A stretch of DNA of 64,000 bases from Candidatus Nanopelagicales bacterium (GTDB taxonomy: Bacteria > Actinomycetota > Actinomycetes > S36-B12), in assembly GCA_012103605.1 (NCBI GenBank), contig WLWL01000002.1, positions 1 to 64,000 of the forward strand, in the 5' to 3' direction. The translations under genes were made by a program, and so were the position numbers. This document shows positions 34,101 to 50,174 of the stretch, piece by piece (positions within the stretch are counted from its first letter, which is position 1; each line of letters opens with the position of its first letter). The notes under the pieces are model-generated. The model was not told where the DNA came from. It did no database searches and saw only the letters and a program-made list of their open reading frames with translations.

Positions 34101-35617
34101 GCGCCTCAGCCATCGAACGGATGAAGTTCGACGACGCGTTGGCTGCGTTCGAGCCGGTACTGGGGCTCGAGACGCACGTGGAATTGGGGACCGCGTCCAA
34201 GATGTTTTGTTCCTGCTCGGCGGAGTTCGGAGGCGAGCCCAACACGCATGTCTGCCCGGTCTGCTTGGGTTTGCCTGGATCGATGCCAGTGGTGAACGCG
34301 TCGGCTATCGAGTCGACGATCCGAATGGGCCTATCGCTGAACTGCTCGATCGTGTCGTGGTGCCGGTTTGCGCGGAAGAACTATTTCTATCCCGATATGC
34401 CGAAGGACTATCAGGTGAGCCAATACGACGAGCCCTTGTGCGTCGATGGCTACCTGGACGTCGTCGTCGCCACAGACGATGGTCCGCGCGAATTCCGCGT
34501 GGAGATCGAACGCGTCCACATGGAAGAAGACACCGGAAAGTTGACACACGCGGGTGGTGACACCGGACGCATCCACGGCGCCGACTACTCCCTGGTCGAT
34601 TACAACCGTGCCGGGATTCCGTTGATCGAGATCGTGACGAAACCGATCGTTGGTGCCGGCGAACTCGCACCGATGGTGGCGCGGGCCTACGTCACCGAGC
34701 TGCGTGACCTCATGCGAGCACTCGGAGTCTCCGACGTTCGAATGGATCAAGGATCGTTGCGGTGCGATGTGAATGTCTCCCTGGCCCCGTCGGGGGAACC
34801 ATGGGGAACGCGATCGGAGACCAAGAACGTCAACTCGCTTCGCAGCGTGGAGCGCGCCGTCCTTTTCGAGATTGAGCGCCAGGCCGCTGTGCTCTCCAGT
34901 GGCGGTCGAGTGGTGCAGGAAACCCGGCATTTCCATGAGGACACCGGTCAGACCACGTCGGGGCGGTCGAAGGAGCACGCCGAGGACTACCGCTACTTCC
35001 CCGAACCCGATTTGGTTCCGGTGGCACCGACGGCGGACCGGGTCGAGGAACTTCGCGGAACGCTGCCCGAGGTGCCATCGGTGCGGCGCGCCCGACTGCA
35101 GGCTCGGTGGAACATCAGCGACCTCGAAATGCAGACGTTGGTCAACGCCGAGGCACTCGATCTGGTGGAGTCGACCATCGATCAGGGCGTCGATCAGGCG
35201 GCGGCCCGCAAGTGGTGGACCGGAGAGTTCACCCGGATTGCCAACGAGCAAGGAATTGCCTTGACGGACCTTCCGGTGACGGCGGCGCACATCGCCCGGG
35301 TCGAGGAGTTGATCGCCGACGGCAGCTTGACCGACAAGCTCGCGCGTCAGGTGTTCGAAGGCGTGATCGCCGGCGAAGGCGATGTCGACGCCGTTGTTCA
35401 GGCCCGAGGGCTCGTGGTGGTTGGTGATGACTCCACGTTGCTCGCGGCGATCGAGCAAGCCCTGGCCGATCAACCTGATGTTGCCGAGAAGATCCAAGGC
35501 GGCAAAGTTCAGGCTGCGGGTGCGATTGTCGGTGCGGTGATGAAAGCGACGAAAGGTCAGGCCGACGCCGCGAAGGTGCGGACTCTTCTGCTGGAGCATC
35601 TCGGAGTCGATGGCTGA
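34097..35617 (+). CDS. gatB: Aspartyl/glutamyl-tRNA amidotransferase subunit B
   Basis: A 506-residue GatB, which phosphorylates the misacylated aminoacyl group and transamidates it. Family blocks are [86 protein letters not shown] and the C-terminal YqeY-like tail domain. The zinc-binding cysteines CSC and CPVC are present. ATG 34097 overlaps gatA; an internal ATG eight codons in is possible. Its 3' end overlaps the dehydrogenase gene by 8 nt. Confidence 0.97.
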
Positions 35618-36503
35618 GCCTCTCGTCTTCGCGCCCGACTATCTCCTTCCTGTCGACACGCAGGGGGCGCTCGGGTACCGGGAAGGCCATGAACCCGATG
35701 CTGAGGTTCTCGAGCGCGTGGGGTTTTTCGTTCCTGCCTATATCGAGCACCCGAACGCGCACTGGATGGCGCGCATGCCACGACTCGATGTCGTGCAACT
35801 GCCGACGGTGGGTTTCGATGCCGTGGTGCCGCAACTGCCGACCGGCGTGACCTTGTGCAACGCGGCGGGAGTTCACGAGCAAAGCACCGCCGAACTTGCT
35901 GTCGGCTCGATCATCGCCGTATGGCGTGGACTCGATCGAGCGGCCCGAGACATGGTCGAGGGGACATGGGGTCATCGGCGGGGTCGCTCGCTGCAAGAGG
36001 CGCGCGTGGTGATCATCGGTGCCGGGGGAGTGGGAACGGCCATTGCGCGCACGCTGGAGCCGTTTCGTTGCGTCACCACCGTGCTGGCTCGTACCCGGCG
36101 CCCGGGCGTTACCCCGATCGCGGATCTTCACGACATCTTGCCCCGTACCGACATTGTGATCCTTGCGGTTCCGCTGACGGATGAGACGGCGGGAATGGTC
36201 GACAATGATTTCCTGTCGCGACTTCCTGACGGCTCGCTGGTGGTCAATGTCTCGCGCGGATCAGTGGCGGTCACCGAGGACATCCGTCGGCACGCAGGGC
36301 GCCTCGAATTCGCGCTCGATGTAACCGAGCCGGAGCCCTTACCCAAGACCCACCCGCTGTGGTCGACTCCGGGTGTCTTCATCACCCCACACATCGGTGG
36401 TGACACCGACGCGTTTCCGCGACTGGCGCAGCAGTTGATCGGCGAGCAGGTGGAACGTTGGCGTAACGATCAACCGCTGCGCAACGTGGTGGCTTCCGGC
36501 TGA
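35610..36503 (+). CDS. D-isomer-specific 2-hydroxyacid dehydrogenase
   Basis: A 297-residue NAD-dependent dehydrogenase. The nucleotide-binding motif is [17 protein letters not shown]; the catalytic Arg is in [10 protein letters not shown], Glu in [15 protein letters not shown] and His in [13 protein letters not shown]. It is shorter at the N-terminus than SerA and lacks an ACT domain, so it is not the serine-biosynthesis enzyme type with regulatory domain. The substrate is unknown; glyoxylate/hydroxypyruvate-like acids are typical. It overlaps gatB by 8 nt, and a similar dehydrogenase follows gatB in other actinomycetes. Confidence 0.88.
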
Positions 36504-36526: not shown

Positions 36527-38215
36527 ATGCCAGACATCAAACCCCGCAGTCGCCAGGTAACCGATGGGCTCGAACGGGCTGCAGCCCGTGGCATGTTGCG
36601 TGCGGTCGGTATGGGCGATGAAGACTTCGCCAAGCCGCAGGTGGCCATCGCATCGAGCTGGAATGAAATTACGCCCTGCAACCTGTCGCTGGAGCGACTG
36701 GCGACATCAGCCAAGGAGGGCGTCCACGCCGCCGGTGGCTACCCATTGGAATTCGGAACCATCTCGGTCTCCGACGGCATCTCTATGGGGCATGAGGGCA
36801 TGCATTTCTCGCTGGTCAGTCGCGAGATCATCGCGGACTCGGTCGAGGCGGTTGTCGAAGCGGAAAGGCTCGACGGCATGGTCACGTTCGCCGGCTGCGA
36901 TAAGTCGCTGCCGGGCATGCTGATGGCGTCGGCTCGGCTCGACGTGTCGTCGGTGTTCGTGTATGCCGGCTCCATCCTTCCCGGCCACGTGAAACTGAGC
37001 GACGGTACGGAGAAGGACGTCACCATCATCGACGCATTCGAAGCCGTGGGTGCGTGCGCGCGAGGCTTGATGTCTCGAGAAGACGTCGATCGAATCGAGC
37101 GAGCCATTTGTCCTGGTGAAGGTGCCTGCGGCGGCATGTACACCGCTAACACGATGGCGAGTGCCGCCGAAGCGATGGGAATGTCGCTGCCCGGGTCAGC
37201 CGCTCCGCCTGCCGTCGATCGCCGTAGAGACACGTACGCACGCAAGAGTGGTGAGGCCGTGGTCGAGTTGCTCCGCCTCGGCATCACCGCGCGCGACATC
37301 ATCACGCGGCAATCTCTGGAGAACGCCATCGCGGTGATCATGGCCTTCGGTGGCTCGACCAATGCGGTTCTGCATCTGTTGGCGATCGCCCATGAAGCCA
37401 AGGTCGACCTGCACATCGAAGACTTCCACCGCATCGGCTCGAAGGTGCCGCTGCTCGCGGACGTCAAGCCCTTCGGTCGGTACGTGATGAGCGATGTGGA
37501 TCGTGTGGGCGGCGTTCCGGTGGTGATGCGCGGCCTGCTCGATGCGGGTCTGCTGCACGGCGACTGCCTCACCGTCACGGGCAAGACGGTTGCCGAGAAT
37601 CTGGCAGACATTGATCCGCCGGATCCGGACGGAACGATTCTGAAAGCGTCGAACGATGCGATCGCTCCGACAGGCGGCATCACGATCCTGTCGGGCTCGC
37701 TGGCTCCCGAGGGTGCGGTCGTGAAGAACGCGGGGGTAGCGGTGGAGGTGTTCGAGGGAACCGCGAGGGTATTCGAGCGTGAGCAGGCAGCCATGGATGC
37801 GCTCGAGGACGGCACCATTCAGGCTGGTGACGTCGTCGTTATTCGATACGAAGGCCCCAAGGGTGGTCCAGGTATGCGCGAGATGCTGATGATCACTGGA
37901 GCCATCAAGGGTGCGGGCTTGGGTAAGGACGTGCTATTGATCACCGATGGGCGCTTCTCTGGTGGCACGACGGGTTTGTGTGTCGGTCACGTCTCCCCAG
38001 AGGCTGTCGACGGTGGCCCCATCGGGCTGCTGCGTGACGGTGATCGCATCATGATCGATATCCCGAACAGGAAGCTCGACGTTCTCGTTGATCCGGCAGA
38101 GTTTGACGCCCGGCGCGAAGCATTCACTCCCCTCCCGCCTCGGTACGAGCGCGGAGTTCTCGCCAAATACGCCAAGCTGGTGGCCAGTGCGTCGAACGGT
38201 GCGGTGACCGGATAG
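36527..38215 (+). CDS. ilvD: Dihydroxy-acid dehydratase (copy 1, probable biosynthetic IlvD)
   Basis: A 562-residue iron-sulfur dehydratase making the 2-keto acids of valine, leucine and isoleucine. The sequence [28 protein letters not shown] and [17 protein letters not shown] is nearly that of mycobacterial IlvD. Cluster cysteines lie in [14 protein letters not shown] and [16 protein letters not shown] assign copy 1 as the biosynthetic enzyme because it matches canonical actinobacterial IlvD best. Its 3' third is almost identical at DNA level to copy 2 at 43684, while the N-terminal two thirds differ, which points to gene conversion. An FAH hydrolase gene follows 59 bp downstream. Confidence 0.93.
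37683..38100 (+). repeat. Near-identical direct repeat, copy A (within ilvD copy 1)
   Basis: From about ggctcgctggctcccgaggg onward this stretch matches 44850-45267 of the second ilvD. By eye the last 310 bp differ at about 18 sites, nearly all synonymous. The two lie in direct orientation about 7.2 kb apart. Confidence 0.75.
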
Positions 38216-38274
38216 TTCCTGCACGATCGGGAAGGTCGACGTCCATCCACCGCACAACCACAGAAGGAATCGGA

Positions 38275-39117
38275 ATGAAGCTTGCGAGAATCGGGGCGCG
38301 GGGTAGCGAAGTACCGGCGGTCCTCGGTCGGGACGGGGTTTATCGAGACGTGTCGAGTGTGGTGTCTGATTTCACGCCCGAATTCTTCGCCGGTGACGGC
38401 ATCGAGCGCTTGCGATCGAGTGATCTATCCGGGCTCTCGGCGGTGAAGGGCCGGATCGGTGCGCCGATCGCCAAGCCGAGCCTGATCTTGTGTGTCGGCC
38501 TGAACTACGTCGATCACGCGAACGAGTCGAGCATGAAGGTCCCTGAGGAACCGATTCTGTTTACCAAGGCACCCAACTGCCTGGTCGGGCCGTATGACGA
38601 TGTTCTAACTCCCCGTGGAGCCACCACGGTCGACTACGAAGTGGAATTGGCGGTGGTGATCGGACGCCGATGTCGATACCTCGACTCGCCTGAGCAGGCA
38701 ATGGACCACCTCGCTGGTTTCACTATCGCGAACGACGTGTCCGAACGAACGTTCCAGCTCGAGCGCGGTGGCGGTCAGTGGATCAAGGGCAAGTCCTGCG
38801 AGACCTTCAACCCGTGCGGCCCGTATCTGGCGACCACCGACGAGGTCGATCTCGACGGTGGACTCGACCTGTGGCTCGACGTGAACGGGGAACGGCGCCA
38901 GACAGGATCGACTCACGACATGATCTTCGACATCGCGACGGTCATCCATCACGTCAGTCAGTTCATGGTGCTCGAACCGGGCGATGTGGTGAACACGGGG
39001 ACTCCACCCGGGGTTGCGATGGGAATGGCCGAACCGGGCTATCTGTCTCCCGGAGACGTGATGACGCTGGGAATCACCGGCCTGGGTGAACAGCGTCAGG
39101 AAGTTGCGTCGGCGTAG
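38275..39117 (+). CDS. Fumarylacetoacetase-family hydrolase, 2,4-diketo-acid hydrolase type
   Basis: A 280-residue FAH-fold protein. LILCVGLNYVDHANES, TTVDYEVELAVVIGRRC (metal-binding Glu pair), ANDVSERTFQLERGGGQWIKGKSCETFNPCGPYL and GDVVNTGTPPGVAMGM are close to 2,4-diketo-3-deoxy-L-fuconate hydrolases of sugar-acid degradation, which split acylpyruvates into pyruvate and an acid. GAAGGAATCGG precedes the ATG. It lies beside ilvD and the divergent sugar operon, and overlaps the convergent SDR gene by 22 bp. A ureidoglycolate-lyase label would be less specific. Proposed here as the last step of an apionate or related pathway. Confidence 0.83.
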   Translation: MKLARIGARGSEVPAVLGRDGVYRDVSSVVSDFTPEFFAGDGIERLRSSDLSGLSAVKGRIGAPIAKPSLILCVGLNYVDHANESSMKVPEEPILFTKAPNCLVGPYDDVLTPRGATTVDYEVELAVVIGRRCRYLDSPEQAMDHLAGFTIANDVSERTFQLERGGGQWIKGKSCETFNPCGPYLATTDEVDLDGGLDLWLDVNGERRQTGSTHDMIFDIATVIHHVSQFMVLEPGDVVNTGTPPGVAMGMAEPGYLSPGDVMTLGITGLGEQRQEVASA

Positions 39118-39917
39118 GAGTCCCAATCACCACCGGAGAGGATTCCGCCCTCGACCACGATGGATTGACCGGTGATGTAGCTCGATGCGGGTGTTGCCAG
39201 GAAGACGACCGCACCGACCAATTCATCTGCCTGAGCCAGCCGCCCTATCGGCGTGGTGTCGGCGAACCACCGGGCACGGTGCTCTTCTCCCCATAGCGGT
39301 TTGGTGAACTCGGTTTGCACGACAGCCGGCTCGATGCAGTTCACGCGAATTCCGTCGGCTACCCACTCGCGAGCAAAGCTGCGTGTCATGCCCGACACGG
39401 CGGCCTTGGTCGCGGCATAGACCGAGATGGTGTTGAAGCTGTAGCGCGCGCTGAGGGAGGAAAGATTGACGATCGCTCCGTGGGGAGATGCGGCGAGATG
39501 CGGGTGTGCGGCTTGGCTCAGCAGGTAGACCGCCCGCATATTGACCGCGGTAATCGCATCGAAGTCGTCGACCGTCACCTCGACGATGGGCTTACGGCGA
39601 TTGATCCCGGCCCCGTTGACGAGAACGTCCAGGCCTCCCATGGCAGCCGCGGCCGCCTCAATGAGCCCCGCGCATTGATCCGGCTCGGCAATGTCCGCGG
39701 CGAACGTTAACGCCGAGCCACCACCGTCGTTGATCTCGGCGGCCAAGGCAGCGACCTTGGTTTCAGAGATGTCGTGCAACGCCACGGTGGCCCCGAGATC
39801 GGCGAAGGCCCGTGCGAGCACCGTTCCGATGGCGCCACCGGCCCCGGTCAACAGAATGCGCATGCCGTCCATGCGGAAGAGGTCGGCGGTGGCAGGAAGG
39901 GAGGGCGCGGGCTTCAT
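39096..39917 (-). CDS. SDR family NAD(P)-dependent oxidoreductase, sugar (acid) dehydrogenase
   Basis: A 273-residue classical short-chain dehydrogenase. Cofactor motif LTGAGGAIGTVLARAF, NGAGINRRKPI, catalytic Ser in NLSSLSARYS, YAATKAAVSG (Tyr and Lys), and C-terminal TGQSIVVEGG. Asp after the second strand (LHDISETK) suggests NAD preference. Such enzymes oxidise sugar acids such as gluconate or 2-keto-3-deoxy acids. It is last in the minus-strand operon, 10 bp after the lactonase-like gene. Exact substrate not readable. Confidence 0.86.
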   Translation of the reverse strand: MKPAPSLPATADLFRMDGMRILLTGAGGAIGTVLARAFADLGATVALHDISETKVAALAAEINDGGGSALTFAADIAEPDQCAGLIEAAAAAMGGLDVLVNGAGINRRKPIVEVTVDDFDAITAVNMRAVYLLSQAAHPHLAASPHGAIVNLSSLSARYSFNTISVYAATKAAVSGMTRSFAREWVADGIRVNCIEPAVVQTEFTKPLWGEEHRARWFADTTPIGRLAQADELVGAVVFLATPASSYITGQSIVVEGGILSGGDWDSYADATS

Positions 39918-39927
39918 CGTGGGCCTT

Positions 39928-41736
39928 TCAGTTGGTGTGTGGGAGATCGAGGATCACCATCGCGGTCGGGGGAATCGTGGTGGGTGGATTGTCGTCGATG
40001 CGAACCACGCGGGGTTCTTCGCTCCAATTGACGACGAGCGCTCGCTCGTTGGCCCCGTCATCCACGATCAGTGCGTCCGCTTCCTCGGGTGCGGAGGATT
40101 GGGCGGTGTGTGCGCGCGTCATCCCGGCAAGGCCGGCGAAGACATCCCACACCGGGAACCGCTGACCGGGAGTGGAGGGAAAGTTCACCGGATCCGATGA
40201 ACCCGCGGCACTTTCGATGATTCCCTTCCACCCAACGGCTTCGAAGTACGTGGCGTGGTTGATGGATCCAGCCTGAGCGAGGTACTTGATGCTCATTGCG
40301 GTCCAGTGTGCCGCGACGTAGGTCATCTGACGGGCGTCGACATTGCTCGGCAGGGGCGTGTTGCTCACGTCGAGAGCGGGTTCGGTGGCATTCGGGTTGA
40401 ACCGGGGGCGCAGCGAAATGGGTGACACCGACACGGGTGTCGCTCGGGTAAGTCGGTGTGCGTTGGCGGCGACGACGGACTGGGTCATGGCGTTCTGGAT
40501 GAGCGTGCGGGTGTCGAATGCATGGACCTGCGGATTCATCGAGAAGTTAAGAACGCTGACCATCGACGGATCGGGGGGCTCGCGGTTGAGTTCGGTGAAA
40601 TACAGATCCGTCCCGCCACCGAGGGCCACGTCGGAGTACCGCTCGCCGAGGGCTTGTCGTGCGCGCGGGGCCCAGTCGTCGGGTGTGACTTTGTCCTGCT
40701 CACTGAAGACGTACCAGCAATCGATGGCGCCGATCACGTCAACGGGGAGTTCTGCGAAGGCGGCCAGTTCCTCGGGTGCACGGCTGACCGAGGCGATGCG
40801 CAGTCGTGCACCGATGCGGTCTGCGATTGATGCAGCCTCGACAAGGTGCGCCGTCCCCGCGCTTTCCAGTCCCGCGCTATCCGGCCCCGTGCTATCTGGC
40901 ACGGAAACGGCAACGCGCAGGTGGTCGAGCCGCAATGACGCGAGGGCCGCGATGTCGGCGTCGGTGATCGGTGGGGAGTCCGGCGCCCATGACAATCCCA
41001 GGCGCGGAAGGTCCGTGACCTCGCCGGTTCGTCGGATCTCGATGACGTCATCGGCGATGGGGGTAACAGGGGCCGATGGTTGTGGACCGGCGTCGAAGTC
41101 GACCACGATTTCCTGGTCGATGTCATGACCGGGAACGACCTCGACGGGGAAGGGCAGTGAAATCGGTGTGCAGTAGGTCTTGAAAGACGCATCGGTCCAA
41201 TTGCGGTGATCTTCCATCTCGAAGACCTCACCATCGAAGCGAACACGCGCGTGGCCTCCACCGGGGAGCTCGTGGGTGATGGATCGCATGTCCACGAAGG
41301 GTTGGTGCGCGGAGATTTCTGTGGGTAGGTGCGCCTTTGTCGTCGTTCCATCCGTGTGTTCGACAACGACGGCGGAGCCTGCCGCGAGCATCGGGTGTAG
41401 GACACACATGCCCAGTCGATTTCGCCAGAAGGGCGCCCGTGTGTGGGCGTGGAATCGATAAGAGACTGCCCGATCGGCGATTCGTGCCACCACGGTCCAT
41501 TCGAGGGGTTCGGCGTCGAACGAGCCGGTGCCGTGGGCGGTGAACTCAATTGCGCCGTCGATCTCGGTGAGCTCGATGTCACCGATGGTGAAGAGTCGAT
41601 TCGTCCAGTTGCGGTCCTGGAAGACCGGATAGATACGCCGGATCGCTTCGTGGCCGTGCCAACGAATGTCGCGCAGATCCGCCCCGTCGATGGTGACGGT
41701 GACGTCGCCGACTCGAACGGTCTGCGTTGGTGTCAC
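39928..41736 (-). CDS. D-apionate lactonase-like protein (ApnL family)
   Basis: A 602-residue protein. The stretch FEMEDHRNWTDASFKTYC with VEHTDG, ISAHQPFVDMRSITHEL and the N-terminal DLRDIRWHGHEAIRRIY resemble, from memory, the D-apionate lactonase ApnL, which opens apionolactone to D-apionate. The C-terminal half (about 260-550) looks like a barrel (LDHLRVAVS, IGAIDCWYVF, TYVAAHWTAMSIKYLAQAG) ending in a beta domain. A 15-bp in-frame repeat encodes PDSTG PDSAG LESAG near residue 283. Overlaps the Gfo/Idh gene by 4 nt. Without this match it would be labelled hypothetical; apionate activity is inferred. Confidence 0.7.
   Translation of the reverse strand: MTPTQTVRVGDVTVTIDGADLRDIRWHGHEAIRRIYPVFQDRNWTNRLFTIGDIELTEIDGAIEFTAHGTGSFDAEPLEWTVVARIADRAVSYRFHAHTRAPFWRNRLGMCVLHPMLAAGSAVVVEHTDGTTTKAHLPTEISAHQPFVDMRSITHELPGGGHARVRFDGEVFEMEDHRNWTDASFKTYCTPISLPFPVEVVPGHDIDQEIVVDFDAGPQPSAPVTPIADDVIEIRRTGEVTDLPRLGLSWAPDSPPITDADIAALASLRLDHLRVAVSVPDSTGPDSAGLESAGTAHLVEAASIADRIGARLRIASVSRAPEELAAFAELPVDVIGAIDCWYVFSEQDKVTPDDWAPRARQALGERYSDVALGGGTDLYFTELNREPPDPSMVSVLNFSMNPQVHAFDTRTLIQNAMTQSVVAANAHRLTRATPVSVSPISLRPRFNPNATEPALDVSNTPLPSNVDARQMTYVAAHWTAMSIKYLAQAGSINHATYFEAVGWKGIIESAAGSSDPVNFPSTPGQRFPVWDVFAGLAGMTRAHTAQSSAPEEADALIVDDGANERALVVNWSEEPRVVRIDDNPPTTIPPTAMVILDLPHTN
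40856..40900 (-). repeat. In-frame 15-bp tandem repeat in the lactonase-like gene (3 copies)
   Basis: Three 15-bp units begin at 40856, 40871 and 40886 (cccgcgctatccggc and variants on the plus strand). They encode a five-residue Asp-Ser-Gly-rich unit in a likely interdomain linker. Confidence 0.8.
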
Positions 41737-42761
41737 AGCATGCTTCCGACCCGGTACGGCTCCCCGGAGTCGAGGGACTGGTAGGCGCCGAGGGTGAGGT
41801 CGAGAACCCGAAGGGTGTCGGCACCGCTGGTTTCCGGGGTCTGGCCGGTTTCAAGGCAGTGGATCCAGTGGTGCTGAACGTTCACCACGCTGTCTTGAAT
41901 GCAGTTCCACGGCTCAGATGCCCACGAATGCTCGGGGATGACGAGCTGTTCTTCGTGGACTCCAGCGGGGGAGACCACCTGCAGGTGGTAGTCCGGACCC
42001 AAGGTGACGGTCCCGTCGGTACCTTCGATGGTCACGAACGTTTGCGGGTACGTGCTGTGATCAGAGGAGGATTCGTAACTCGTATCAACGATGCACGTGG
42101 CGCCAGGAAGGCCGAGAACGATGGTGGCCACGTCCTCGCCCTTGATCTTCGGGTTGACCCTGATGGCTTCGCTGAACAGGCGGTCGGGCTCGCCGAGGAA
42201 GAAGCGAGTGAGGTCGAACTGATGAACCGACACATCCGCGATGATCATGCGTTCGGCATCCATGCACCATGGCTGCGCGGAGTAGACATCGTGGGCGGTG
42301 CGAAAACTGATGCGGCCGAAGAATGGTCGACCGATGCCCCCGCTATCGAGGACCTCTTTGACCTTGCGCATCGGATATTGGAATCGAAAATTCTCGTGGA
42401 CCATGAACGGGAGATCCGCATCGGCCATGGCGCGAACCATCGCCTGGGCATCATCCATGTCCCAGGCGAGTGGCTTTTGGCAAATGGCGGCCACTCGGTG
42501 CTGTGCGGCGAGTTCGACCATCATGCGGTGCGTCGGCGGGGTGGTGGCGATGTCGACGAAGTCGAGTTCTTCCTTGGCGAATAGTTCAGCGGCGTCGGTG
42601 TACGGGGTCCCGCCGAACGTTTCGGCCGCGGCCGCGGCGCTGTCGGGATTAATGTCGCAGGTGGCGACGAGTTCGACGTCGGGCATCTCGGCCCACGCCT
42701 GCAGGTGGTTTTGAGCGAAGAAGCCACAGCCGATCAGAGCGAAACGATAGGGACGGCTCAC
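41733..42761 (-). CDS. Gfo/Idh/MocA oxidoreductase, D-apiose dehydrogenase-like
   Basis: A 342-residue NAD(P)-dependent sugar dehydrogenase. Rossmann motif ALIGCGFFAQNHLQAWAEM, then VDIATTPPTHRMMVELA, AICQKPLAWD (the family's catalytic EKP-type lysine), MVHENFRFQYPMRKVKEVL, RPFFGRISFR and C-terminal ETSGADTLRVLDLTLGAYQS. These closely resemble the D-apiose 1-dehydrogenase ApsD as I remember it, and the next gene is an apionate-lactonase-like protein, which strengthens the assignment. Product would be apionolactone. Both junctions overlap by 4 nt. Other aldose or inositol substrates cannot be excluded. Confidence 0.78.
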   Translation of the reverse strand: MSRPYRFALIGCGFFAQNHLQAWAEMPDVELVATCDINPDSAAAAAETFGGTPYTDAAELFAKEELDFVDIATTPPTHRMMVELAAQHRVAAICQKPLAWDMDDAQAMVRAMADADLPFMVHENFRFQYPMRKVKEVLDSGGIGRPFFGRISFRTAHDVYSAQPWCMDAERMIIADVSVHQFDLTRFFLGEPDRLFSEAIRVNPKIKGEDVATIVLGLPGATCIVDTSYESSSDHSTYPQTFVTIEGTDGTVTLGPDYHLQVVSPAGVHEEQLVIPEHSWASEPWNCIQDSVVNVQHHWIHCLETGQTPETSGADTLRVLDLTLGAYQSLDSGEPYRVGSML

Positions 42762-43615
42762 AACTCCACCTCACGGCCCGGGTCGACGATCCATTCACTC
42801 CACGATCCGACGTACATGCGGGCTCCCGGCAATCCCGCGTGCTCCATGGCGAGGACGTTTTGAGCGGCCGTGACCCCGGAACCGCAGTAGAAGATGATGT
42901 CGTCTGCGTCCTGACCGTTGCGGAGGGCGTCGTAGTGAACTCGCAGATCCTCAGGGCTCCGGAAAGTGCCGTCGTCGTCGAGTGTCTCGGCTCGATCGGC
43001 CAGGCCCGCTCCCTTGATATGCCCGCGGACGGGGTCGTAGTACTTGCCTTGCCCGTGGTAGCCCTCCGGTCCTCGAGAGTCGAAGACGCGTGTGGGCGTA
43101 TCGACGCGAACGCGGTCGACTTCGTCGACCTCGGCCAGCAGATGAGGACGCACCGACGCGACAAAGGTCTGCTCCGGCGCGGGGGGTGAGGTCGCCTCAG
43201 ACGTCATCGAGTAGCCGGCACCTTCCCAGGCCGGCAGGCCGCCATCGAGAACAGCCACCGCGTCGTGACCGATCCAACGCATCATCAGCCACACACGAGA
43301 TGCCGCCATCAACCCGCGATCGGCGTCGTAGACGACTACCTGAGTGGACGGTCCGATGCCCCAGGATCGAACAGTGCGCTCGAAGTCTGCGGACGCGGGA
43401 AAGGGCCGACGGCCGGTAACGCCCTCGATGATCGGACCGCTCAGGTCGGTCGCCAGGCTGGCTCGCTGAGCTCCGGGAATATGTGACTCGGCGAACGCCC
43501 GATCCCCCCAGTCTTCGTCGTCGAGATGGAAGCGGGCATCGAGGATGACCACGTCGGTCTCGGCGCGACACAGGTGATCAAGTTCGGATGCGGTGATTAA
43601 CGTCTGGAATGACAC
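42758..43615 (-). CDS. Sulfurtransferase, 3-mercaptopyruvate/thiosulfate type (tandem rhodanese)
   Basis: A 285-residue protein with two rhodanese domains. The N-terminal inactive domain holds VVILDARFHLDDEDWGDRAFAESHIPGAQRASL; the C-terminal domain has VFDSRGPEGYHGQ and the active-site loop FYCGSGVTAAQNVLAM with catalytic Cys. CGSGVTA loops favour 3-mercaptopyruvate or thiosulfate. It is first in the minus-strand sugar operon and overlaps the Gfo/Idh gene by 4 nt; why a sulfurtransferase leads this operon is unclear. Its start is 68 bp from the divergent second ilvD. Confidence 0.88.
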   Translation of the reverse strand: MSFQTLITASELDHLCRAETDVVILDARFHLDDEDWGDRAFAESHIPGAQRASLATDLSGPIIEGVTGRRPFPASADFERTVRSWGIGPSTQVVVYDADRGLMAASRVWLMMRWIGHDAVAVLDGGLPAWEGAGYSMTSEATSPPAPEQTFVASVRPHLLAEVDEVDRVRVDTPTRVFDSRGPEGYHGQGKYYDPVRGHIKGAGLADRAETLDDDGTFRSPEDLRVHYDALRNGQDADDIIFYCGSGVTAAQNVLAMEHAGLPGARMYVGSWSEWIVDPGREVEL

Positions 43616-43671
43616 GTGGACGTTCCTACCCTTTCCTCGCTGATGGCAGTGCCCCCGATGATGTCCCTTCC

Positions 43672-43677
43672 TAGACT
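43672..43677 (+). promoter_or_regulatory. Candidate -10 element of leaderless ilvD copy 2
   Basis: TAGACT ends six nucleotides before ATG 43684, inside the 68-bp divergent intergenic region shared with the sulfurtransferase-led operon. A regulator acting here could control both units. Confidence 0.5.
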
Positions 43678-43683
43678 ACGAGC

Positions 43684-45381
43684 ATGACCTCTCCCGTGCG
43701 TATGAAACCCCGCAGCTTTCTGGTGACCGACGGACCCGACCGAGCACCGAACCGGGGAATGCTACGTGCTCTGGGCATGGACGACGACGACTTCACCAAG
43801 CCTCAGATCGGAATCGCCAACAGCTATAACCGCATCACACCCTGCAATATGTCGTTGCGCGATGTTGCCGTGTCGGTTGCGCAAGGTGTCGAAGCCGGGG
43901 GTGGCTTCCCGATGGAGTTCGGGACGATCACGGTGTCGGACGTGATCTCGATGGGCCATGAGGGGATGCACTTCTCGCTTGTGAGTCGAGAGGTGATCGC
44001 AGATTCGGTAGAAACCGTCGTCCAGGCCGAACGTCTCGATGGGATGGTCACGCTGGCGGGATGCGATAAGTCCATTCCGGCCATGATGATGGCGGCCGGC
44101 CGACTCGATATCGCATCCGTGCTCTTATACGCGGGCTCGCTACTTCCCGGATACGTGCGTCTGACCGACGGCACCGAAGAGACCGTCAACATCGTGACAG
44201 CTTTCGAGGCTGTCGGTGCTCGCGCGCGCGGCTTGATGAACGATGAAGACGTCGATCGAATCGAGCGAGCGGTATGTCCGAGCGCGGGCACGTGCGGTGG
44301 CATGTACACCGCCAACACGATGGCAAGTGCGGCCGAAGCGATGGGCCTGGCACTTCCTGGTTCATCCTCACCCCCCGCGGTCGATTCGCGACGGGACACC
44401 TTGGCGCGGCGCAGCGGTGAAGCGGTTATCGAGATGTTGCGACAAGACATCACGGCACGAGACATCATCACCAAGCAGTCCCTGGAGAACGCGATAGCCA
44501 TCGTGATGGCACTCGGTGGTTCGACGAATGCTGTCCTGCACCTTCCAGCGATCGCGCACGAAGTCGGGGTTGATTTGGGAATGGACGATTTCCACCGGAT
44601 CGGAGCCCGCGTGCCGCACGTTGCGGATCTCAAGCCCTTCGGTGAGTACCTGATGTTCGACCTCGACAAGGTCGGGGGTGTTCCCGTTGTGCTGAAGGCT
44701 CTCTTGGAAGTGGGCTTGCTGCACGGTGATTGTCTGACGGTGACCGGCCGGACGATGGCCGAGAACCTCGCGGACATTGAGATCCCCGAACCTGACGGCA
44801 CCGTCGTTCGACCGATCTCGTCACCGCTCGGGTCTACCGGGGGGATCACCATTCTCGGCGGCTCGCTGGCTCCCGAGGGTGCGGTCGTGAAGAACGCGGG
44901 TGTTCCCGTGGAGGTTTTTGAGGGGGTGGCGCGTGTGTTCGATCGTGAGCAGGCAGCCATGGATGCGCTCGAGGACGGCACCATCCAGGCTGGTGACGTT
45001 GTCGTCATTCGATATGAAGGCCCCAAGGGTGGTCCGGGTATGCGCGAGATGTTGATGATCACTGGAGCTATCAAGGGTGCGGGCTTGGGTAAGGACGTGC
45101 TGTTGATCACCGATGGGCGCTTCTCCGGTGGCACGACGGGTTTGTGTGTCGGTCACGTCTCCCCGGAGGCCGTCGACGGTGGCCCCATCGGGCTGCTGCG
45201 TGATGGTGACCGCATCATGATCGATATCCCCAACAGGACGCTCGATGTGCTCGTCGATCCGGCAGAGATGAGCGAACGCCACGCGTCGTTCGAACCGTTA
45301 CCTCCGCGCTATAACCGAGGCGTGCTCGCGAAGTACGCCAAGTTGGTGGGTAGCGCCTCGAAGGGAGCCATCACGGGGTAA
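43684..45381 (+). CDS. IlvD/Edd-family dehydratase (copy 2, diverged; candidate sugar-acid dehydratase)
   Basis: A 565-residue paralogue of the ilvD at 36527. Cluster cysteines are kept ([29 protein letters not shown]). The N-terminal two thirds differ at sites conserved in copy 1: [10 protein letters not shown] becomes [18 protein letters not shown] becomes DKSIPAMM, and [12 protein letters not shown] becomes [12 protein letters not shown]. The C-terminal third is nearly identical. It is divergent from the apiose-like operon and shares its control region. D-apionate has the 2,3-dihydroxy-3-branched skeleton of dihydroxyisovalerate, so I infer that copy 2 may dehydrate apionate. A second biosynthetic IlvD remains possible. 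Confidence 0.82.
44850..45267 (+). repeat. Near-identical direct repeat, copy B (within ilvD copy 2)
   Basis: Partner of 37683-38100. Includes the long shared run gagcaggcagccatggatgc and the following 300 bp at about 94 percent identity by eye, against visibly lower identity in the upstream halves of the two genes. Confidence 0.75.
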
Positions 45382-46060: not shown

Positions 46061-46099
46061 CACGTGGGTCGAGCACGTGGGTCGAGCACGTGGGTCGAG
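46061..46099. repeat. Perfect 13-bp tandem repeat (3 copies)
   Basis: cacgtgggtcgag occurs three times at 46061, 46074 and 46087, in the leader just before the HEPN gene. CACGTG within each unit is itself palindromic, so binding by a dimeric regulator is possible. Confidence 0.9.
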
Positions 46100-46134
46100 A
46101 AAACCAGCACACGCATAGAGAAGGGATCTTCGCG

Positions 46135-46644
46135 ATGAACTCGACCCGCCCTGGGACCCGCCCTGGGACCCATTCTGGTGATGCGCTCCCCGCATCGAAT
46201 CTCCGTGAGTTGACTATGACGCCGGTTGCCGCGGACGACTTGATCCACAGTGCTCAGCGCAGTTTGGCTCGTGCCGCGCTAGCGGGCACCCCGCACGAGC
46301 GATACGCCGCCGCACACCTTGCGGCCTTACGAGCTGCTGCCGCGGTTATCGCTGTTGTTGCCTCCCGGTCTTCTCAGGTGCGCGCCAACCGACCGGTGCG
46401 TCAGCAAGTGCGGAGCGCGTGGGTGGTGCTACGTGAGGTGTGTCCGCCGCTGTCGGAGTGGGCGGATTTCTTTGCCGCTGGCGCCCAGACCCGTGCCGCT
46501 GCCGAAGCCGGAATCCCGTGCGTCGGTGCGCGGGCAGCAGACGATCTCGTTCGCGATGCGCAGACGTTCCTGGCTCGAGTCTGTGACGTACTGGAGTTGG
46601 CCCATCAGCCAGCGCTCGATCTACGGCTGCGTGCCGTCGGTTAG
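46135..46644 (+). CDS. SAV_6107-type HEPN-domain protein
   Basis: A 169-residue helical protein. The core LIHSAQRSLARAALAGTPHERYAAAHLAALRAAAAVIAVVASR and QVRSAWVVLREVCPPLSEWADFFA fit the SAV_6107-family HEPN domain that accompanies dnaE2/dinB in Streptomyces and relatives. The canonical RNase motif R-x4-H was not found, so nuclease activity is doubtful. The start is ATG 46135 (GAAGGG upstream), not the track GTG 46090. An N-terminal 12-bp repeat encodes RPGTRPGT. First gene behind the LexA box; 2 bp separate it from the polymerase gene. Confidence 0.78.
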   Translation: MNSTRPGTRPGTHSGDALPASNLRELTMTPVAADDLIHSAQRSLARAALAGTPHERYAAAHLAALRAAAAVIAVVASRSSQVRANRPVRQQVRSAWVVLREVCPPLSEWADFFAAGAQTRAAAEAGIPCVGARAADDLVRDAQTFLARVCDVLELAHQPALDLRLRAVG

Positions 46645-46646
46645 GC

Positions 46647-49600
46647 GTGGGAGTCGTTTCACCACCGTTCGCCCATTTGCACGTAGCTTCCAGCCACTCA
46701 CTTCGGTATGGCGCCACCTTGCCGGAGTTACTCGTGCAACGCAGTGCCGAACTTGGTCAGTCAATCGTCGCTCTTACCGACCGAGACGGCTTGTACGCGG
46801 CGGTCCGGTGGGTACGTGAGTGTTCCCGGCTGGGCATACAACCGGTACTCGGAGTGGATATCGCGGTCGAGGCAACCCAGGTGGCGCGGGTGCATCCGGA
46901 CGTGCAGGCACGGACACCGGCGCGCGGGGGTCGGTGGATTGATGAGACACGTCCGCGAGTCCTTTTGCTCGCGACGGGTTCGCGAGGGTGGGCATCACTA
47001 TGTCGCCTTGTGAGCGCTGCACACATCGGCGATCACACCGCGCGCGGTGAACCGTGGGTGCCGTGGTCGGCGTTGCGCGAACACAGCGAGGGGATAGTCG
47101 TCATTCTCGGTGCGGACTCCGAGGTTGGTCGGTATCTCGCAGATGAGCGAGCGACTCTCGCTGAGGCGGCGACGCGGCCGTGGCGTGCGGTATTCGATCG
47201 GTATCTCGCTATCGGTGTCACGTCCCATCGGCAGCCGGGTTTTCCGCTGCGTCGTCGACATCGGTACTCAACAGCGACAGCAGCGCGCATGCTGGGATGG
47301 GCGCGCGAGCAACGGTTGCCTGCTGTTGTGACCAACGCGGTGCGATACGCCCATCCCGATCAAGCCGGTATCGCCGAGGTGCTAGACGCCTCTCGATTGC
47401 TTGTGCCGTTGAGTTCGCCACGGCTCGAGCGCCAGCAGGGAGCTCACGCGTACGTGAAATCAGGGCAAGAAATGGCGGAGATCGCAGCGGAGATCGCCCA
47501 CGCGTCAGGGGGACAAGACGAGCGCGGCGGGCAACGCCTATTAGAAGACACGTGGCATCTCGCGCAGTACTGCGCACTCGACTCCGGGCGAGATCTGGGC
47601 CTGGGGGAGGTTTTCGTTCCCGAACTCGACGTGCTTCTGGGAAGGGAGATTCCCGACCCGGTTGCAGAGGCTGCGACTTTATTGCGCCACCGATGTGCCG
47701 CAGCGATACCCGACCGCTACTCGAAAGACGAAAGAAGCCAAGCCGAGCATCGACTCGACGCCGAACTGAGAACCATCACGAGTCTCGGTTTCTCCGGGTA
47801 TTTCCTCACCGTCGCCGAGGTGGTCGACATGGTTCGAGATAGAGGAATACGGGTGGCTGCGCGTGGCTCCGGCGCTGGAAGTCTCGTTACCCATCTCTTG
47901 GGGATCAGTGGCGTTGATCCCATTCGGCACGGATTGTTGATGGAGCGGTTCTTGTCACCGCTTCGGCGAGTGCTCCCGGATATCGATATCGACGTCGAAT
48001 CAGCCCGACGATTGGAGGTCTACGACCTCATTCGCGATCGATTCGGTGACGGGCGGGTCGCAAGCGTCTCGATGATGGAGACCTATCGCGTGCGGCATGC
48101 CGTTCGAGATGTTGGTGCCGCACTCGGTATGGACGTGGGGGAAGTCGATGCATTCGCAAAGGCGTTTCCGCATGTTCGTGCTCGACAAGCCCGCAGTGCG
48201 CTGAGCGATCTTCCTGAGTTGCGAAACTCTCATATAGGACAACTCGCGAATGATGGACAGCTCGATCATTTCCTCGACCTCGTCGAAGGCCTCGATGGGT
48301 TACCCCGAGATATCGCCATGCACCCGTGTGGTGTGGTCCTCTCCGATGCCACGCTGCTCGATCGAACCCCCGTGGAGAGCAGTGCCGCGGGCTATCACAT
48401 GAGTCATTTCGATAAACACGATGTCGAGCACATGGGTCTACTCAAACTCGATGTTCTTGGGGTTCGAATGCAGTCGGCGATCGCGCACGCAATCACCGAG
48501 GCCGAGAACAACACGGGGGAGAGCATCGAACTCGATGATCGTCAGCTCGATGATCCGAAAACATTTGAGCTCATCCGATCGACCAAGACCTTGGGGTGCT
48601 TCCAAATTGAGTCACCGGGTCAACGTGAACTTCTTGGCAAGTTCGCACCCGATCGTTTCTCTGATCTGATCATCGACATATCACTGTTTCGCCCAGGACC
48701 GGTCAAATCAGACATGGTGACGCCATTCCTTATGGCTCGGCAGGGGTGGTGTGCTCCGGAGTACCCGCACTCCGATCTTGAATCGATATTGCATGAGACC
48801 TATGGAGTGGTGGTATTCCACGAACAAGTGCTGCGCATCATCGCAACGATGACGGGATGTTCTCTCGCTGAAGCCGATGAATGCCGACGCAGTATGGGGT
48901 CACCGGACGGGCAAGACGATGTCCGGGCGTGGTTCTACCCGACCGCCATCAACCACGGTTACGACGTCCCGACTGTCGAGCGAGTGTGGGAGATTCTTCG
49001 GGCATTCGCGTCCTTCGGCTTCTGCAAGGCGCACGCAGCAGCCTTCGCGCTCCCCACGTATCAATCTGCATGGCTCAAGGCGCATTATCCAGCAGCCTTC
49101 TATTGCGGAATATTGACGCACGATCCGGGTATGTATCCCAAAAGGCTCTTACTCGACGACGCACGAGTGCATGGAATCCGAGTGCTAGGTATCGACGTCA
49201 ATATTTCGGGTGACGCCTATCGAGTGGAGGGAGCGGACGCACAAGCTATTCGGGTTCCCCTGACCGAAGTAGCGGGTATTAGTGAGCATGAAGTCCAAAG
49301 GCTGATCGATCGGCGCCCTTTCTCCTCGCTCTCCGACGCGATAGGGCGAGCAGAGTTGTCACGACCCGTGGCGGAAAACCTGGTGGTGACAGGGGCATTC
49401 GACGCATTGCATCCCGCCCCCGTTACTCGACGGGATCTGTTGCTGCAGGTTGCCGATATCGACAGGCACACACGGTCGACGGGTATCGATACGCAGTTGT
49501 CATTCGATCTCCTCGGATCAACAGCTGAATTCGTTCCGATTACGGGGCTACCGGAAATGAAAGCAAGTGACCGAGTTCGATCGGAGATGTCGGTCCTGGG

Positions 49601-50174
49601 TTTGGACGTCAGCGCCCATGTGGTGGATTTCTACAAGGATCTATTGAGCGAGATGCGCGCCACTGCTGCCTGCGATCTACTGAAGCAAAGATCCGGTAGC
49701 GACGTATGGGTCGCCGGTGTCAAAGTCGCAATTCAAAGTCCCCCCGTGCGTAGTGGGCGGCGAGTGATCTTCGTAACCCTTGATGACTCCACGGGCCCCA
49801 TCGATGCGGCCTTCTTCGATGATGTTCAAGAGAACTACGCATCGACGTTGTTCAATTCCTGGTTGCTCATCATTCGTGGGCGCCTTCGGCGATCCGGGCC
49901 GCGAGGAGTGTCGATGCGCGCCACTGGTTGCTGGGATCTGGGGGATGTGCGGCGACTGTGGAAAGACGAAGGAATGGATGCTGTTCGCTCGTTACTGACC
50001 TATGACCCTGCTTCAGAGCAGGCCCCAGATGTTCACGCAGGACCACGGAAGGTGCTGGTGCATGCAAGTGGTTTCCAGCAATCGCCTTACGCCGACATCA
50101 CTCCCGCCGGAGCTTCCGTGAATCGTCCGCCGGGGAAGTTTTGGCATTCCAGTCCTGGTGTCTCCGGCTGGTAG
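46647..50174 (+). CDS. dnaE2: Error-prone DNA polymerase III alpha subunit, DnaE2 type
   Basis: A 1175-residue C-family polymerase. Domains: PHP (about 1-290), polymerase palm with the catalytic acidic motif LPDIDIDVE (about 445) and neighbouring RGSGAGSLVTHLLGI, fingers SLFRPGPVKSDMV and HETYGVVVFHEQV, HhH (about 860-920) and an OB fold (about 1030-1110). The PHP opening reads HLHVASSHSL where active ones have HLHVH, so a metal ligand is missing. It performs translesion synthesis in the SOS response with DinB/ImuB partners. GTG start 2 nt after the HEPN gene. It resembles Streptomyces DnaE2 more than replicative DnaE. Confidence 0.88.
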   Translation: MGVVSPPFAHLHVASSHSLRYGATLPELLVQRSAELGQSIVALTDRDGLYAAVRWVRECSRLGIQPVLGVDIAVEATQVARVHPDVQARTPARGGRWIDETRPRVLLLATGSRGWASLCRLVSAAHIGDHTARGEPWVPWSALREHSEGIVVILGADSEVGRYLADERATLAEAATRPWRAVFDRYLAIGVTSHRQPGFPLRRRHRYSTATAARMLGWAREQRLPAVVTNAVRYAHPDQAGIAEVLDASRLLVPLSSPRLERQQGAHAYVKSGQEMAEIAAEIAHASGGQDERGGQRLLEDTWHLAQYCALDSGRDLGLGEVFVPELDVLLGREIPDPVAEAATLLRHRCAAAIPDRYSKDERSQAEHRLDAELRTITSLGFSGYFLTVAEVVDMVRDRGIRVAARGSGAGSLVTHLLGISGVDPIRHGLLMERFLSPLRRVLPDIDIDVESARRLEVYDLIRDRFGDGRVASVSMMETYRVRHAVRDVGAALGMDVGEVDAFAKAFPHVRARQARSALSDLPELRNSHIGQLANDGQLDHFLDLVEGLDGLPRDIAMHPCGVVLSDATLLDRTPVESSAAGYHMSHFDKHDVEHMGLLKLDVLGVRMQSAIAHAITEAENNTGESIELDDRQLDDPKTFELIRSTKTLGCFQIESPGQRELLGKFAPDRFSDLIIDISLFRPGPVKSDMVTPFLMARQGWCAPEYPHSDLESILHETYGVVVFHEQVLRIIATMTGCSLAEADECRRSMGSPDGQDDVRAWFYPTAINHGYDVPTVERVWEILRAFASFGFCKAHAAAFALPTYQSAWLKAHYPAAFYCGILTHDPGMYPKRLLLDDARVHGIRVLGIDVNISGDAYRVEGADAQAIRVPLTEVAGISEHEVQRLIDRRPFSSLSDAIGRAELSRPVAENLVVTGAFDALHPAPVTRRDLLLQVADIDRHTRSTGIDTQLSFDLLGSTAEFVPITGLPEMKASDRVRSEMSVLGLDVSAHVVDFYKDLLSEMRATAACDLLKQRSGSDVWVAGVKVAIQSPPVRSGRRVIFVTLDDSTGPIDAAFFDDVQENYASTLFNSWLLIIRGRLRRSGPRGVSMRATGCWDLGDVRRLWKDEGMDAVRSLLTYDPASEQAPDVHAGPRKVLVHASGFQQSPYADITPAGASVNRPPGKFWHSSPGVSGW

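What the first reader, a model, noticed from the sequence alone, without database searches (positions are those of the whole stretch)
36527..45381. Candidate D-apiose/apionate pathway using a duplicated dihydroxyacid dehydratase
A minus-strand operon encodes an ApsD-like Gfo/Idh dehydrogenase (41733-42761), an ApnL-like lactonase (39928-41736) and an SDR (39096-39917), with an FAH-type diketo-acid hydrolase converging on it and a diverged IlvD paralogue divergent from it. Known apionate routes use oxidoisomerase and decarboxylase steps, and none of those genes is here. D-apionate is 2,3-dihydroxyisovalerate with hydroxyls on both methyls, so an IlvD-type enzyme is a chemically natural apionate dehydratase. 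Proposed order: apiose to apionolactone to apionate, dehydration to a 2-keto acid, SDR oxidation to a 2,4-dioxo acid, FAH hydrolysis. This would be a new branch of apiose catabolism, which occurs in plant cell walls and duckweeds.
Basis: partly seen in the sequence, partly recalled or inferred. Interest (0 to 1): 0.86.

Follow-up and report, generated by a model that had tools for sequence, protein, structure and literature searches.

The report
Likely apiose-degradation cassette with recruited IlvD
Freshwater and brackish actinobacteria of the order Nanopelagicales, including the abundant acI group, carry a conserved gene cassette that looks like an alternative way to break down the plant sugar apiose, in which a spare copy of the amino-acid-biosynthesis enzyme IlvD appears to have taken over a sugar-acid step.

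Summary
The genes are real and at the stated coordinates. The 602-aa protein is a full-length but diverged homologue of D-apionate lactonase ApnL (244 bits; curated cut-off 750). Its relatives in Acidobacteria, Chloroflexi, Armatimonadota and Bacteroidota sit beside apiosidase, ApsD-like, presumed ApnO-like, OiaC, or OiaK/OiaX genes, so the apiose assignment is well supported by context. The conserved unit is RHOD-ApsD-ApnL-SDR with a divergent second IlvD (DHAD2). It occurs across one Nanopelagicales family, inserted between ilvD and ilvBNC, and in streamlined acI genomes away from the ilv operon. DHAD2 is one clade (99/100), distinct from the housekeeping ilvD, keeps all Fe-S/Mg ligands, and has fixed changes around the substrate channel. 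No ApnO-type gene or curated OiaX occurs in nine family genomes. An IlvD-type dehydration of apionate is therefore the best reading, but it is inferred. The FAH step is weaker: FAH is absent from acI cassettes, missing or truncated in several family cassettes, and its homologues often sit in a separate sugar-acid locus. DHAD2 was also lost in two genomes that keep the rest. Verdict: reader partly supported; new variant of a known kind, biochemistry untested.

The parts
36527..38215 (+). DHAD1, housekeeping ilvD; flanks the cassette, not a part of the pathway
   Evidence: Same type is the only IlvD in many cassette-less relatives and lies directly upstream of ilvB there; passes the ilvD equivalog cut-off
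38275..39117 (+). FAH-family 2,4-dioxo-acid hydrolase; optional neighbour, co-directional with DHAD1, 3' end overlaps the SDR gene
   Evidence: NF053535 2,4-didehydro-3-deoxy-L-rhamnonate hydrolase 332 bits, cut-off 500; absent from acI cassettes and several family cassettes, truncated in G055
39096..39917 (-). SDR dehydrogenase, last gene of the core operon
   Evidence: adh_short_C2 204 bits; present in every cassette whose contig reaches it
39928..41736 (-). ApnL-like D-apionolactone lactonase candidate
   Evidence: NF049900 244 bits, E 2.5e-72, below the cut-off 750; apiose-gene neighbourhoods of relatives; confident model, beta-sandwich plus TIM barrel
41733..42761 (-). ApsD-like Gfo/Idh/MocA dehydrogenase candidate
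   Evidence: GFO_IDH_MocA; 48% identical to the Gfo/Idh next to OiaX/OiaK-like genes in L145
42758..43615 (-). Rhodanese/3-mercaptopyruvate-sulfurtransferase-like protein, first gene of the operon, CGSGVTA loop
   Evidence: Rhodanese 84 bits; PRK11493 99 bits, cut-off 250; kept in all family and acI cassettes whose contig reaches it
43616..43683 (.). Compact divergent intergenic region between the operon and DHAD2
   Evidence: Divergent layout kept in all compared cassettes that have DHAD2; about 40-164 nt in the 23 listed
43684..45381 (+). DHAD2, cassette-specific IlvD paralogue; proposed D-apionate dehydratase
   Evidence: One clade of 23 RHOD-adjacent DHADs, support 99/100; Fe-S and Mg ligands kept, 22 group-specific sites

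Best explanation
The core RHOD-ApsD-ApnL-SDR operon plus divergent DHAD2 is a dehydrative variant of oxidative D-apiose catabolism. Steps: (1) D-apiose to D-apionolactone by the ApsD-like Gfo/Idh (supported by context). (2) Lactone to D-apionate by the ApnL-like protein (supported by homology and context). (3) D-apionate, which is 2,3-dihydroxyisovalerate with both methyls hydroxylated, to 4-hydroxy-3-(hydroxymethyl)-2-oxobutanoate by DHAD2 (inferred). (4) Oxidation of a hydroxymethyl group by the SDR (inferred). (5) C-C cleavage towards C1 units and pyruvate by an enzyme not yet identified: FAH where present, possibly the rhodanese, or a trans-encoded aldolase (speculative). DHAD2 arose by duplication of ilvD and moves with the cassette; the neighbouring housekeeping ilvD still serves branched-chain amino-acid synthesis.
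For: ApnL homology over the full length. Relatives of the lactonase sit with apiosidase PF13204, PGDH_C/KARI-type oxidoreductase (presumed ApnO), OiaC-like TIM barrel, OiaK and OiaX homologues, and such loci bracket the Nanopelagicales/acI clade in the tree. DHAD2 is in 31 of 34 lactonase-bearing family genomes and 1 of 51 others; that one, G070, has RHOD next to it, so its lactonase is probably missing from the assembly (Fisher 1e-18, uncorrected for phylogeny). DHAD2 is one clade including acI. acI genomes of 1.2-1.5 Mb keep it beside the operon although ilvD-ilvBNC is intact elsewhere. In G075 and G078 the ilvD slot holds an unrelated E. coli-type IlvD (typed in G075: PRK12448, 1153 bits; 42% identity in both) while G075 retains DHAD2 at its place and G078 holds one on another contig. 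Fixed DHAD1-to-DHAD2 changes lie at mapped channel positions (G84V, I168V, D169T, A200T; enrichment P 0.008), and gene conversion touches only the C-terminal part. No PGDH_C (ApnO type) and no OiaX over cut-off in nine family genomes.
Against: No activity data. The ApnL score is a third of its curated cut-off. DHAD2 still passes the ilvD equivalog cut-off and its pocket changes are not clearly polar. DHAD2 is absent in G051 and G106, which keep the other four genes. No apiosidase over cut-off in any of 18 family/acI genomes. Four of five acI genomes tested also carry a separate ApnO/OiaC-type gene or cluster; in the two read in full it includes a second, more distant ApnL homologue, so the cassette could serve another sugar. 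The rhodanese is unexplained.
Confidence: 0.5

Rival explanations
1. The cassette degrades a different, related sugar or lactone (another branched aldose or its lactone). ApsD-like and ApnL-like enzymes make its acid and DHAD2 dehydrates that acid.
For: LAC is far below the ApnL equivalog cut-off. acI genomes carry a second ApnO/OiaC/SDR/ApnL-like cluster followed by a sugar ABC transporter. No apiosidase in the genomes. An amino-acid-type ABC transporter follows the SDR in four acI cassettes.
Against: The cassette LAC is much closer to ApnL (244-263 bits) than the second acI copy (78 bits), and apiose-type contexts bracket its clade.
Confidence: 0.22
2. DHAD2 is merely a second biosynthetic dihydroxyacid dehydratase that became linked to the operon; apionate is processed by the SDR, the rhodanese and unlinked genes.
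For: Passes the ilvD equivalog cut-off. In most family genomes it lies directly upstream of ilvB. Gene conversion with DHAD1 in the C-terminal domain. Lost in G051 and G106 with the operon retained.
Against: In acI it lies with the operon and not with ilvBNC, and streamlined genomes keep both copies. G075 keeps DHAD2 although another biosynthetic IlvD replaced DHAD1. Group-specific fixed changes near the channel.
Confidence: 0.2
3. It is an ordinary Route III pathway for a linear pentose or deoxyhexose: dehydrogenase, lactonase, IlvD/EDD dehydratase, SDR 4-dehydrogenase, FAH hydrolase giving pyruvate plus a hydroxy acid.
For: FAH is closest to 2,4-didehydro-3-deoxy-L-rhamnonate hydrolase; SDR plus FAH is the published Route III pair (PMC6336799).
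Against: DHAD2 is of the ilvD type and not the EDD/sugar-acid type. FAH homologues often sit near an EDD-type dehydratase at another locus and FAH is absent from acI cassettes. The lactonase family is ApnL.
Confidence: 0.08

Closest known systems
Oxidative D-apiose pathways (ApsD, ApnL, ApnO, then OiaK/OiaX or OiaC; Carter et al. 2018, known to me via PMC6302742, PMC11747546 and my own knowledge)
   Same: ApsD-like and ApnL-like first two steps; relatives of both genes sit in apiosidase/Oia clusters
   Different: No ApnO-type gene and no OiaX over cut-off in the family genomes; instead an IlvD paralogue, an SDR and a rhodanese
Non-phosphorylative Route III pentose/deoxyhexose pathways (PMC6336799)
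   Same: Logic: lactonase, dehydratase, SDR, with an FAH hydrolase next door in part of the family
   Different: Dehydratase is an ilvD paralogue and not an EDD-type or enolase-type sugar-acid dehydratase; FAH is not in the core
Dihydroxyacid dehydratase IlvD (6ovt, 5ze4)
   Same: [2Fe-2S] ligands, Mg ligands and active-site Lys kept; catalytic Ser motif kept in the window copy
   Different: Cassette-bound clade with 22 group-specific substitutions, several near the substrate channel
3-mercaptopyruvate sulfurtransferase SseA
   Same: Rhodanese domain, CGSGVTA loop
   Different: 99 bits against a cut-off of 250; role in a sugar operon unknown

Membership tests
ApnL, D-apionate lactonase (NF049900) | Score over the curated equivalog cut-off of 750 | tested here: not met
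   244 bits; apiose-cluster relatives elsewhere also score only 253-338
ApnL, D-apionate lactonase (NF049900) | Full-length homology and apiose-gene context in relatives | tested here: met
   acI orthologue aligns 16-593 of 595; contexts; tree
ApnL, D-apionate lactonase (NF049900) | Hydrolysis of D-apionolactone | not testable with these tools
   needs an enzyme assay
Canonical oxidative apiose pathway | ApnO oxidoisomerase (taken as PGDH_C domain, from context) | tested here: not met
   0 of 9 family genomes; 4 of 5 acI genomes have one, in a separate cluster where read
Canonical oxidative apiose pathway | OiaX decarboxylase over the curated cut-off | tested here: not met
   best 80 bits against 700 in 14 genomes; the window genome's hit is an RLP beside mtnA (L221)
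Canonical oxidative apiose pathway | OiaK kinase or OiaC decarboxylase in the window genome | not tested
   genome-wide searches for these two were not run; only neighbourhoods were read
IlvD dihydroxyacid dehydratase (TIGR00110) | Score over cut-off, Fe-S cysteines and Mg ligands | tested here: met
   729 bits against 618; C54, C127, C204, D86, D128, K129 in 23 of 23
IlvD dihydroxyacid dehydratase (TIGR00110) | Acts on 2,3-dihydroxyisovalerate | not testable with these tools
   needs an assay
Route III sugar-acid pathway | EDD/sugar-acid-type or enolase-type dehydratase | tested here: not met
   DHAD2 below cut-off for PRK13016, PRK06131 and edd
Route III sugar-acid pathway | Obligate FAH hydrolase in the unit | tested here: not met
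   absent from acI cassettes and several family cassettes, truncated in G055

The most novel reading that the evidence does not exclude
A further branch of apiose catabolism in which a neofunctionalised IlvD dehydrates D-apionate, carried as a five-gene cassette by Nanopelagicales including acI; possibly with the rhodanese, whose relatives release a 2-oxo-acid enolate, acting in the C-C or C1 step.
Probability: 0.42. Interest if true: 0.75.

Novelty: new variant of a known kind. Interest (0 to 1): 0.62.

Why it matters
acI and related Nanopelagicales are among the commonest freshwater bacteria and have very small genomes, so a kept five-gene cassette points to a regularly met carbon source. 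Apiose is found in plant cell walls and in apiogalacturonan of aquatic monocots such as duckweeds. If true, it would link these bacteria to aquatic-plant carbon, give a clear case of a duplicated amino-acid-biosynthesis enzyme recruited to catabolism through substrate likeness, and correct automatic 'second ilvD' annotations. A lineage with a complete genome (Ca. Planktophila lacus) carries the cassette, so it could be tested.

Tried and rejected
Copy 1 as the pathway dehydratase (it is co-directional with FAH): rejected because it is the sole IlvD in many cassette-less genomes and directly precedes ilvB there. FAH as a core member: rejected on distribution. D-2-hydroxyacid dehydrogenase 35610-36503 as a member: rejected, it is found at gatB-ilvD in cassette-less genomes too. 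mtnA/aldolase-SDR/RLP downstream in acI as members: set aside, because the same trio stands apart from the cassette in the window genome (L221). RLP as OiaX: rejected on score. No solved structure by sequence for LAC; Foldseek gives only distant glycoside-hydrolase-like folds, TM at most about 0.5. No paper in the held library joins apiose and an IlvD route; Carter et al. 2018 itself is not held. The amino-acid ABC transporter in acI is not constant.
Full report
Observation. The listed genes are present at the stated coordinates and belong to the stated families. The minus-strand operon has four genes and not three: a rhodanese/MPST-like gene (42758-43615) precedes Gfo/Idh, lactonase-like and SDR, with 4-nt overlaps at two junctions. 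The two IlvDs are 77% identical in protein and are the only PF00920 genes in the genome.

What the lactonase is. The 602-aa protein has no Pfam match but matches NCBIfam ApnL at E 2.5e-72, 244 bits against a curated cut-off of 750; its acI orthologue aligns over nearly the whole model. So it is a homologue, not a certified member. AlphaFold gives a confident model (pLDDT 88), a beta-sandwich followed by a TIM barrel, with only distant glycoside-hydrolase-like folds in the PDB.

Context of relatives. A scan of one genome per species found the family in Nanopelagicales, acI (Ca. Planktophila lacus), Acidobacteria, Chloroflexi, Armatimonadota and Bacteroidota. Outside Nanopelagicales a substantial minority of relatives sit in recognisable apiose clusters: L180 reads apiosidase, LAC, Gfo/Idh, PGDH_C oxidoreductase, OiaC-like TIM barrel; L145 reads LAC, Gfo/Idh (48% identical to the window's), OiaX-like, OiaK-like, PGDH_C; apiosidase or Oia genes also occur in L157, L161, L171, L176, L178 and L183, and Oia/PGDH_C genes in L181 and L185. 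Many Acidobacterial relatives show none of these. In the tree the Nanopelagicales/acI sequences form one fully supported clade bracketed by apiose-cluster members (quick method, SH-aLRT only). The PGDH_C protein is taken as ApnO from its position; no ApnO model was matched.

The cassette. RHOD-GFO-LAC-SDR occurs in the 34 genomes of the window's family that have the lactonase, as far as their contigs reach (36 of 166 in the order have any LAC match). In cassette-less relatives and in acI the ancestral locus is gatB-ilvD-ilvB-ilvN-ilvC; in cassette-bearing family genomes the cassette lies between ilvD and ilvB. In acI the same five genes lie elsewhere while ilvD-ilvBNC stays intact.

DHAD2. Every RHOD-adjacent DHAD falls in one clade (23 rows, 99/100), with the acI copies nested inside and the housekeeping copies outside. 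DHAD2 is in 31 of 34 lactonase-bearing family genomes and in 1 of 51 others (G070, where RHOD is next to it). In G075 and G078 the housekeeping slot has been taken by an unrelated IlvD (PRK12448 type in G075, the one typed), while G075 keeps DHAD2 in place and G078 holds a DHAD2-type gene on another contig. All Fe-S and Mg ligands checked are kept in 23 of 23. Of 22 positions fixed differently between DHAD1 and DHAD2, seven lie within two residues of positions lining the Arabidopsis DHAD channel or cluster (P 0.008; mapping and PMC11528067). They include G84 to V87 in the 99-102 loop, I168 to V171 at the narrowest point and A200 to T203 next to a cluster cysteine. These changes are not plainly polar, so they show divergence around the channel but not a preference for apionate. 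All 22 sites lie in the N-terminal 325 residues, whereas gene conversion between the two copies (about 95% nucleotide identity against about 70%) is limited to the C-terminal part and happened separately in at least two lineages.

Missing canonical steps. No PGDH_C gene was found in nine family genomes, and no OiaX over the cut-off in fourteen genomes. OiaK and OiaC were not searched genome-wide. Four of five acI genomes do have a PGDH_C gene; where read in full (L219, L220) it lies with an OiaC-like gene, an SDR, a second and more distant ApnL homologue (78 bits in L219) and a sugar ABC transporter. This leaves open that the cassette serves a related sugar.

FAH. The hydrolase is closest to 2,4-didehydro-3-deoxy-L-rhamnonate hydrolase and keeps the His/Glu pair (PMC6336799). 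But it is absent from acI cassettes and from several family cassettes, and only a truncated copy remains in G055 although the cassette is intact. Homologues at 46-60% identity often lie on the same contig as an EDD-type dehydratase elsewhere. It is best seen as optional.

Mechanism. From established chemistry (my own knowledge): D-apionate is (2R)-2,3,4-trihydroxy-3-(hydroxymethyl)butanoate, with the same C2 configuration as natural (2R)-2,3-dihydroxyisovalerate. An IlvD reaction would give 4-hydroxy-3-(hydroxymethyl)-2-oxobutanoate. The SDR could oxidise one hydroxymethyl, and deformylation or retro-aldol steps would lead to pyruvate and C1 units. Steps 1-2 rest on homology and context, step 3 on linkage and divergence, steps 4-5 on inference. 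Mutants of a DHAD can be made to accept D-gluconate better (PMC9314677), so the scaffold tolerates hydroxylated substrates.

Weak points. Loss of DHAD2 in G051 and G106 with the rest retained means either that the housekeeping IlvD can do the step there or that the step is not obligatory. The rhodanese is constant and unexplained. No apiosidase over cut-off was found in these genomes, so free apiose would have to come from others.

Noticed in passing
window 36527-38215 and 43684-45381: Recent gene conversion between the two ilvD copies, limited to about 90 C-terminal codons; a different tract is converted in G068.
   Followed up: partly
L221 (G000:C225:1905-6021) and L128:12583-16692: A trio mtnA, class II aldolase/SDR fusion and RuBisCO-like protein in the window genome and in acI, directly after the cassette in Planktophila lacus.
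   Followed up: partly
L219:5947-10103 and L220:5798-9954: Second ApnO/OiaC/SDR/ApnL-like cluster in acI next to sugar-kinase and aldolase genes (AraB/AraD-like by eye), followed by a sugar ABC transporter.
   Followed up: partly
L128:1960-6363: Sulfolactate-type genes (SAF/UxaA-like pair, LDH2-family dehydrogenase, YeiH-type exporter) beside the cassette in Planktophila lacus.
   Followed up: no
L131, L132, L133, L125 after the SDR: Amino-acid-type ABC transporter follows the cassette in four acI genomes but not in L128 or L149.
   Followed up: partly
L035:4049-5881, L036:2-1792: Housekeeping ilvD replaced in place by an E. coli-type IlvD (xenologous replacement at the same locus); typed by profile in L035 only.
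   Followed up: partly
L056:7504-7929: FAH gene reduced to fragments in G055 while the cassette is intact.
   Followed up: no
L039:11762-12433, L058:3115-3780, L061:2884-3561: A DUF2510 membrane-protein-like gene lies between ilvD (or FAH) and the SDR in some family genomes.
   Followed up: no
window 46090-50174: A DnaE-type DNA polymerase gene and a 184-aa ORF without NCBIfam match follow DHAD2, where most relatives have ilvBNC; the ilv operon is displaced in this subclade.
   Followed up: no
L040:4675-6314: In G077 the DHAD2 copy is read as two pieces (residues 8-206 and 231-563), so it may be broken or misassembled there.
   Followed up: no
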